From Bacillus sp. AFS059628 (GTDB lineage: Bacteria; Bacillota; Bacilli; Bacillales; Bacillaceae_G), in assembly GCF_002571225.1 (NCBI RefSeq), contig NZ_NVEC01000003.1:345215-409214 (forward strand): DNA of 64,000 nt, in the 5' to 3' direction. Position numbers and translations under genes: made by a program. A model generated the notes under the pieces. The model saw only the letters and a program-made list of their open reading frames with translations, had not been told where the DNA came from and searched no databases. Each line of letters opens with the position of its first letter. Within the stretch, counting starts at the first letter, position 1. Positions 46,843 to 48,235 of the stretch are shown in pieces.

Positions 46843-48082
46843 ATAGGAATTTTGCAGTTGTTTCATCATACCGAATTGGATGATATGTTGCATCTTGTTT
46901 TAGTAGTTGTGTTCGTAACGGTTCTTGCATAATGGAGAAATATACAGAATTGGCTTTTCGCTCAATGTGTAAAGTAGGGTGATCAAATGTTTTTGTATGG
47001 GTAAGGATTGGAAGCTCTATTTTTTTCTTGTTTTTTGAAAGGTAAGTTTGTCCTTTTTGTGACATGCCTAGTAGACGAATGTACGGTGCATGCTGTTCTA
47101 TATTTGCGCTATGTATTTCTTCTTTTGTTGTATTTGTTAAAATGTGTGTACAAGCTCTTTGCAGTCTAGTCCACGTATAACGCTTCGTTTTTAATGCTTC
47201 CATGAATGAATGGAAGGAGGAACTGCTTTGTATTTTTGATAAAATACGATGCTCTAAACCTTCTTCAATTTCATATATATGTCGTAAGTCGTCTGGAGAC
47301 ATCGTCATAAGTTTGTATTTGAAAAATGAAAAATATTGTTCCCAATTATGTAATATCCCGTAGTTTTGTTTATAATTTGCTAAAAGAGAAGCAGTCGCTT
47401 CGGGGATAAAAGGCTCAATTTCTGTAAAGGAACTATTTTCGCTAAAAAGTTGTTTACGAATACTTGTTGCGCTTGCAATATGTTGGTCGTTAAAAGTTTC
47501 ATCATGATAATGAGATGCGAATCTTTTTATCGTTTGTGCTTGCATAGAACTATTTTGCGACAGAATTGCTTTCATGTACTGGAAGCCTAAAATGTTATTT
47601 GGTTGTGACATGTCTATGTTTTTTTCGGAAGGTAAAATGTGGCGGAAAGCTTCAGATGTAGCTTTTGCGTAACTATTACCTGCGTTCATGAATTGCTTTA
47701 CAAGACGATTATAAGTCTCTTCTTCATTTTTTTGCACAGAGATCGTGTTATAAAAATTTTTGATTTGTCCATCTTCACTACCGAAACAAATTTCAGAAAC
47801 GTGTAGGGCGTTTAAAATAGAAATAGCGCCATTTGCAAAGGTTTCAGCCTTTTGTGTTGAGAAGGCATAAGGAAGCTCTACAACGAGGTCTACACCGCAT
47901 GCTAAGGCCATTTTGGTGCGATACCATTTGGATACGAGTGCCGGCTCACCACGTTGTAAAAAAGGGCCACTCATAACAGCGATTGTTATATCAGTGTGTG
48001 TTAACTTTTTTGTTTGTTGCACATGATAATCATGACCGTTATGAAAAGGGTTATATTCAACGACAATACCACTGGCTTTTAT
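46841..48082 (-). CDS. tmcAL: tRNA(Met) cytidine acetate ligase TmcAL (YlbM), apparent ATA start
   Basis: Makes N4-acetylcytidine at the elongator tRNA-Met wobble base using acetate and ATP. The open frame extends upstream of the first usual start (GTG 48022) to ATA at 48080-48082. The added 20 residues read (M)KASGIVVEYNPFHNGHDYH and contain the nucleotidyltransferase motif HNGH, and they align with the B. subtilis N-terminus. AAAGGAGAG lies eight bases before the ATA, while GTG 48022 has no SD. The full form is 413 aa (B. subtilis 415); the 393-aa form would lack the active site. Either an ATA start or a mutated start codon. Confidence 0.82.
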   Translation of the reverse strand: MKASGIVVEYNPFHNGHDYHVQQTKKLTHTDITIAVMSGPFLQRGEPALVSKWYRTKMALACGVDLVVELPYAFSTQKAETFANGAISILNALHVSEICFGSEDGQIKNFYNTISVQKNEEETYNRLVKQFMNAGNSYAKATSEAFRHILPSEKNIDMSQPNNILGFQYMKAILSQNSSMQAQTIKRFASHYHDETFNDQHIASATSIRKQLFSENSSFTEIEPFIPEATASLLANYKQNYGILHNWEQYFSFFKYKLMTMSPDDLRHIYEIEEGLEHRILSKIQSSSSFHSFMEALKTKRYTWTRLQRACTHILTNTTKEEIHSANIEQHAPYIRLLGMSQKGQTYLSKNKKKIELPILTHTKTFDHPTLHIERKANSVYFSIMQEPLRTQLLKQDATYHPIRYDETTAKFL

Positions 48083-48235
48083 GGTAATCTCTCCTTTCGA
48101 TGTAGCATCTTTTTGAAAAACGTGATACTCTATATATTATTTACTATGATGACTTCATTATAGTGTAAAGAAAAAACATTGACAAATATAAAATGGCTAG
48201 CTATAATTTTGTTTGTTGCCTTGAGGTGATATGAT

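What the first reader, a model, noticed from the sequence alone, without database searches (positions are those of the whole stretch)
48020..48095. tmcAL appears to start at an ATA codon; the usual start would delete the active site
The 20 codons upstream of GTG 48022 are open and encode VEYNPFHNGH, the nucleotidyltransferase motif, in exact register with the B. subtilis start. The codon in the Met position is ATA, eight bases after AAAGGAGAG. No ATG, GTG or TTG is available there. Either ATA is used, at low efficiency, with regulatory meaning (the enzyme acetylates tRNA-Met), or the gene has a damaged start. Automated annotation would give a 393-aa inactive-looking protein.
Basis: partly seen in the sequence, partly recalled or inferred. 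Interest (0 to 1): 0.78.

Follow-up and report, generated by a model that had tools for sequence, protein, structure and literature searches.

The report
tRNA-modifying enzyme gene starting with ATA
A bacterial gene for an enzyme that modifies a transfer RNA very probably starts with the rare codon ATA, which gene finders ignore, so automatic annotation would cut off the enzyme's active site; several relatives also use weak start codons here, which suggests that the cell keeps this protein scarce.

Summary
tmcAL lies on the minus strand; the Met-position codon is ATA (48082-48080), 8 nt after AAAGGAG; the first standard start in frame (GTG 48022) would remove VEYNPFHNGH. It is not a local error or decay: the one other close copy that the tools yielded (IMG/VR contig, 96% aa) also has ATA, dN/dS between them is 0.09, and all 87 near-invariant TmcAL columns are kept, 11 before the GTG. 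No genome closer than 59% aa was found, so conservation in the presumed B. cereus group rests on 2 copies. In the nearest held family (19 genomes) this position reads CTG 7, TTG 5, ATG 4, GTG 2, ATA 1 (that one has in-frame ATGs upstream); none of 128 other sequences lacks a standard start. Start-codon turnover is at least 8 changes, against 0-3 for seven control genes. infC reads ATT in 19 of 19. Best reading: genuine weak AUA start keeping TmcAL low. A special link between AUA and the enzyme's tRNA-Met target is not supported. AUA starts are in print (PMC13009471), so this is a new member of a known kind.

The parts
46841..48082 (-). tmcAL (ylbM) reading frame from ATA to stop, 413 aa
   Evidence: PF05636 profile positions 2-395 and NF010191 2-391; PDB relatives 5y0n-q and 5y0r-t
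48080..48082 (-). ATA, inferred start codon
   Evidence: register, ATA also in L051, SD spacing
48091..48097 (-). Shine-Dalgarno AAAGGAG, 8 nt before ATA
48032..48061 (-). codons 8-17, VEYNPFHNGH (nucleotidyltransferase motif)
   Evidence: V8, E9, Y10, N11, P12, H14, N15, G16 and H17 are near-invariant columns
48020..48022 (-). GTG, first standard start in frame; rejected as the start
   Evidence: the aligned codon is TTA in 13 of 19 family loci, TTG 5, CTG 1; GTG in L051
48157..48185 (-). likely tmcAL promoter TTGTCA-17-TATAAT (11 of 12 matches)
   Evidence: consensus match only
48179..48207 (+). likely yceD(ylbN)-rpmF promoter TTGACA-17-TATAAT (12 of 12), sharing its -35 with the tmcAL promoter
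   Evidence: consensus match only
48079..48108 (-). 9-codon upstream frame ATG...TAA in another frame; its stop overlaps ATA (ATAA); no SD of its own
   Evidence: sequence; same leader in L051
46812..46840 (-). terminator-like hairpin directly after tmcAL

Best explanation
tmcAL in this Bacillus cereus-like genome is translated from the AUA codon at 48082. A 7-nt Shine-Dalgarno at a suitable distance holds the codon in the P site, and initiator fMet-tRNA (anticodon CAU) pairs with AUA with a mismatch at the third position, so initiation is inefficient and the protein, a full-length TmcAL, starts with Met. A consensus-like promoter and strong SD combined with a weak codon set a low, steady level of an enzyme that is needed only in small amounts. 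The nearest held family has moved between ATG and weaker codons (CTG, TTG, GTG, perhaps ATA) unusually often, so it is the weakness rather than the letters AUA that seems to be favoured or tolerated. Shown here: register, SD, second ATA copy, purifying selection, turnover in relatives. Inferred: actual initiation at AUA, its low efficiency, and the reason for it.
For: Register with the family. Second copy L051 with ATA and 95 identical nt upstream, dN 0.019, dS 0.200. 87 of 87 near-invariant columns kept in both copies, 11 within codons 1-20. Family codons CTG 7, TTG 5, ATG 4, GTG 2, ATA 1 of 19; 128 others ATG 100, TTG 20, GTG 7, GTA 1 (the last has ATG 7 codons upstream). In the 7 CTG loci the frame closes 13 codons upstream without a standard start, and in 5 of 7 none occurs in the next 28 codons either (L121 has GTG at codon 6, L126 TTG at codon 13). 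SD complementarity of 7-8 nt in all 21 close and family loci. At least 8 start-codon changes on the tree versus 0-3 in seven control genes. Precedent: in S. aureus the AUA starts of infC and ccpN and the AUU start of cvfC1 lie behind extended SDs, and the AUA or AUU sites of ccpN, citZ and cvfC1 gave about 10% of AUG reporter activity in poor medium, up to 30% for ccpN in rich medium (PMC13009471, passages and part of the Discussion). ylbM is dispensable in B. subtilis (PMC4634966, passages), so a low level is tolerable.
Against: No protein or ribosome data. Only 2 close copies could be read. The one family member with ATA (L113) has in-frame ATGs 9 and 14 codons upstream, so it may not start at ATA at all and is weak support. 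Outside the family tmcAL starts look ordinary, so low expression is not a general need. Drift toward weak starts in a dispensable gene would look similar. The SD-ATA pattern alone is not beyond chance.
Confidence: 0.75

Rival explanations
1. Start damage: the gene lost its ATG by mutation and is decaying; either no protein or an inactive 393-aa one is made from GTG 48022.
For: Outside the family ATG is the commonest codon, 100 of 128; ATG to ATA is one change; ylbM is dispensable in B. subtilis.
Against: ATA is shared by two copies at dS 0.20 with dN/dS 0.09 over the gene; all 87 near-invariant columns are intact, including the 11 before the GTG; codons 1-20 differ at 2 of 60 nt against 6.8 expected at the third-position rate (p about 0.03); no SD is seen before GTG; the GTG is not conserved in the family.
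Confidence: 0.09
2. The AUA is a sensor: as with AUU of infC, translation of tmcAL responds to initiation fidelity (IF3 level, initiator tRNA or formylation state) or to the decoding state of AUA, giving feedback on the enzyme that guards AUA against Met misreading.
For: The modification hinders Met misreading of AUA (PMC12514573 and PMC10192219, passages); AUA initiation of ccpN varies with medium in S. aureus.
Against: The codon is labile in relatives (5 different codons in 19), whereas infC reads ATT in 19 of 19; the tRNA that TmcAL modifies is the elongator, which is not used for initiation (established knowledge).
Confidence: 0.09
3. Initiation at another codon near by: ATT 48088-48086 in frame two codons earlier, or re-initiation at ATA after the 9-codon upstream frame whose TAA overlaps it.
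For: ATT is used in infC by inference from register and SD; an ATG in the same stretch (ATGCTACA) also occurs in L113.
Against: Only 2 nt lie between AAAGGAG and ATT; L113 has no ATT there; the upstream ATG lacks an SD in both, is in frame in L113 but not here, and the string ATGCTACA is not in the other 18 family leaders printed.
Confidence: 0.07

Closest known systems
Conserved AUA/AUU starts of Firmicutes: infC, ccpN, cvfC1 (PMC13009471)
   Same: Non-standard AUN start behind a strong SD; missed by annotation.
   Different: Those starts were seen by ribosome profiling; here there is only sequence evidence. infC reads ATT in all 19 genomes read here, whereas tmcAL's codon changes.
TmcAL of solved structures: 5y0n-5y0q (UPF0348 protein B4417_3650, B. 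subtilis by recall) and 5y0r-5y0t (Thermotoga maritima)
   Same: Homology from residue 2, to the end of the protein for 5y0n-q and to residue 365 for 5y0r-t.
   Different: The window copy begins with ATA; that the B. subtilis gene begins with ATG is recalled, not read here.
CTG-start tmcAL of seven genomes in the nearest held family (L117, L119, L121, L123-L126)
   Same: Same gene, same position, strong SD, no standard start upstream in frame.
   Different: CTG instead of ATA, in a separate branch of the tree; two of the seven have a standard codon soon after.

Membership tests
TmcAL (tRNA-Met cytidine acetate ligase, PF05636 / NF010191) | Full-length match to the family model above cut-off | tested here: met
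   PF05636 471.2 bits, cut-off 27; NF010191 529.5 bits, cut-off 360
TmcAL (tRNA-Met cytidine acetate ligase, PF05636 / NF010191) | N-terminal nucleotidyltransferase motif and other near-invariant residues | tested here: met
   87 of 87 columns conserved in at least 97% of 147 relatives are kept, 11 of them only if translation starts before the GTG
TmcAL (tRNA-Met cytidine acetate ligase, PF05636 / NF010191) | Acetate- and ATP-dependent ac4C34 formation on elongator tRNA-Met | not testable with these tools
   needs an assay or tRNA mass spectrometry
Genes with a genuine non-standard (AUN/CUG) start | No standard start in register, but strong SD 5-10 nt before the odd codon | tested here: met
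Genes with a genuine non-standard (AUN/CUG) start | Non-standard nature shared by relatives | tested here: met
   2 of 2 close copies, and 8 of 19 family genomes though not with the same codon (7 CTG; the 1 ATA has ATGs upstream); small sample of close copies
Genes with a genuine non-standard (AUN/CUG) start | Ribosomes or peptides observed at the codon | not testable with these tools
   needs ribosome profiling or N-terminal proteomics; no such data set is on hand
infC-type autoregulated start | Start codon identity fixed among relatives | tested here: not met
   tmcAL: 5 codons among 19; infC: ATT in 19 of 19

The most novel reading that the evidence does not exclude
The AUA start makes tmcAL a translation-fidelity gauge: when the cell's discrimination at AUA slackens, initiation at this AUA rises, more TmcAL is made, more elongator tRNA-Met is acetylated and AUA misreading falls. 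The switch to CTG, TTG and GTG in sister lineages would be other settings of the same gauge of initiation stringency.
Probability: 0.09. Interest if true: 0.8.

Novelty: new member of a known kind. Interest (0 to 1): 0.46.

Why it matters
It adds a tRNA-modification gene to the few bacterial genes with a probable AUA start, and points to a lineage in which one gene's start codon has changed again and again while neighbouring genes' starts stayed nearly fixed. It also means that a protein entry produced with standard starts for such a copy lacks the active-site motif, which would mislead structure prediction and ac4C studies. Several start codons among relatives give a natural series for testing how start-codon strength sets the level of a tRNA-modifying enzyme.

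Tried and rejected
Rejected: GTG 48022 as start (no SD seen, aligned codon not conserved, motif lost). ATT 48088 as start (2 nt from the SD). A special RNA fold of the leader: z-score -0.78, 43 of 200 shuffles fold at least as well. The SD-plus-ATA pattern as evidence by itself: not beyond chance.

Limits of the counts: of 380 genomes with tmcAL outside the family in the order sample (396 of 397 match, G220 does not; 16 of the 397 bear handles of the family), 125 were read, all from the best-scoring rows of a capped list; 3 more came from genome contigs and may repeat a species. L004 and L006, two distant ATG copies, were left out. Control genes were chosen because their starts align cleanly, which biases against odd starts; coaD is the fairest; 9 to 20 or fewer rows were available per gene (13 to 20). 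The tree counts use a tree of tmcAL itself (its first codon left out), not of other genes. The Fisher value ignores kinship and is not used.

Full report
What is there. tmcAL (ylbM) is on the minus strand, 48082 to 46841, divergent from yceD(ylbN)-rpmF. The leader reads CGAAAGGAGAGATTACC-ATA-AAAGCCAGTGGTATTGTCGTTGAATATAACCC. ATA is at 48082-48080, 8 nt after AAAGGAG. Upstream the frame closes after 18 codons without ATG, GTG or TTG; downstream the first is GTG 48022, codon 21. The mechanical ORF is therefore 393 aa. The full frame is 413 aa and matches solved TmcAL chains from residue 2 (5y0n-q, B. subtilis by recall; 5y0r-t, Thermotoga maritima), Pfam PF05636 from profile position 2 and NCBIfam NF010191 from position 2; the short form enters both models at position 21. 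No tool names the organism; B. cereus group is by recall.

Chance. AAAGGAG-8-ATA alone means little: one occurrence, 0.30 expected, 28 of 100 shuffles with at least one. With spacing 5-10 there are three, and the other two are really ATATG starts. The case rests on position and homology.

Is it an accident of this sequence? No close relative turned up in genome contigs (best 58% identity; 6 loci) or among the 19 whole genomes of the Ectobacillus family (best 59%), so I looked in other collections. IMG/VR holds one contig with a 96%-identical tmcAL behind a phage integrase (L051). It has the same ATA, and its upstream DNA is identical for 95 nt. The two genes differ at 63 of 1242 nt, 47 of them at third positions; dN 0.019 and dS 0.200. 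An identical 95 nt has probability about 1e-5 at the third-position rate, but a promoter and ribosome site are expected to be conserved anyway. In the alignment of 149 TmcAL frames, both close copies keep all 87 columns that are at least 97% conserved in the other 147, and 11 of these lie in codons 1-20. A gene starting at GTG 48022 would have been free to lose them; the two copies are not far apart, however, and codons 1-20 alone give only p about 0.03.

Relatives. The family around Ectobacillus has 19 held genomes, all with tmcAL. At the same position they read CTG 7, TTG 5, ATG 4, GTG 2, ATA 1. Every one, and both close copies, has 7-8 nt of SD complementarity ending 4-8 nt before the codon. 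The 7 CTG loci have no standard start in frame upstream; five have none in codons 2-29 either, L121 has GTG at codon 6 and L126 TTG at codon 13. The ATA relative, L113, has in-frame ATGs 9 and 14 codons upstream, neither examined beyond the lack of an SD before the nearer one, so it may not start at ATA. Among 128 other sequences, 125 from the same order and 3 Bacillaceae by record title, the count is ATG 100, TTG 20, GTG 7 and one GTA whose frame has ATG seven codons earlier. On the tmcAL tree, built without the first codon, the close copies fall with the Ectobacillus group and two more genomes (8 rows, 96/96), and L113 is nested among TTG relatives, so the two ATA lineages may have arisen separately; counts on a tree cannot tell gain from loss. 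The fewest start-codon changes for the 21 rows are 8, against 1 for the coaD-like gene, 0 rsmD-like, 0 yceD, 1 rsmH, 2 ftsL-like, 0 DUF7147 and 3 ylbE on 13 to 20 rows each (names by Pfam, and by recall of the neighbourhood). None of the 123 control copies has a non-standard start, with the bias that controls were picked for clean starts.

A useful contrast is infC, whose AUU start is the classical case of autoregulation by IF3 (recalled; also stated in PMC13009471 for E. coli). In the same 19 genomes the codon behind its GGAGG is ATT in 19 of 19; that it is the start is inferred from spacing. A codon that serves as a sensor stays fixed; the tmcAL codon does not. This argues that tmcAL needs a weak start, or tolerates one, rather than AUA as such.

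Mechanism. The tmcAL promoter candidate matches consensus at 11 of 12 and shares its -35 with the perfect yceD-rpmF candidate (consensus matches only). Inferred: strong transcription tied to a ribosomal-protein promoter is offset by weak initiation. In S. aureus, the AUA or AUU sites tested (ccpN, citZ, cvfC1) gave about 10% of AUG in poor medium and up to 30% for ccpN in rich medium, and the authors stress extended SDs at such sites (PMC13009471, abstract, passages and part of the Discussion). B. subtilis ylbM can be deleted (PMC4634966, passages). TmcAL acetylates C34 of elongator tRNA-Met and, with TilS, guards AUA decoding (PMC12514573, one passage); loss of TmcA, which makes the same modification in E. 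coli, raises Met misreading at AUA (PMC10192219, passages). It is tempting to link this with the AUA start, but initiation uses a different tRNA and relatives use CTG, so I give that about 0.09.

Known or new. AUA starts in Firmicutes are in print. The listings of searches, which cover open-licence papers only and show at most the best rows, gave no report of one for tmcAL. I recall, without having checked, that database entries for cereus-group TmcAL are 393 aa long, which would fit a group-wide ATA and a group-wide annotation error. Verdict: very probably genuine and, as far as these searches show, new for this gene; a new member of a known kind, with an unusual pattern of start-codon turnover in one family.

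Noticed in passing
L051 1179-3000; window 48157-48185: In the IMG/VR relative a phage integrase (PF00589) and an HNH/AP2-like protein lie directly upstream of tmcAL, and identity to the window begins 95 nt before ATA, between the -35 and -10 of the tmcAL promoter candidate: a phage seems to be integrated in the divergent tmcAL/yceD-rpmF promoter.
   Followed up: partly
window 48079-48108: A 9-codon upstream frame ends in TAA overlapping the ATA (ATAA). An ATG in the same string (ATGCTACA) exists in L113, the other ATA relative, but there in frame with tmcAL.
   Followed up: partly
window 48179-48185: The tmcAL and yceD-rpmF promoter candidates share one -35 element (TTGACAA / TTGTCAA) back to back.
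   Followed up: no
window 4684-4668: Another gene has an almost identical leader, AAAGGAGAGATTACATATG, with an ordinary ATG (peptide deformylase by recall, not tested).
   Followed up: no
L070, L080, L100, L104, L134, L151 (genomes G036, G060, G389, G106, G340, G028) and G387: Seven tmcAL matches in the capped list carry one in-frame stop; for the six fetched, the frame from the start is still 370-450 aa, so the stop should lie near the C-terminus. G387 was not fetched.
   Followed up: partly
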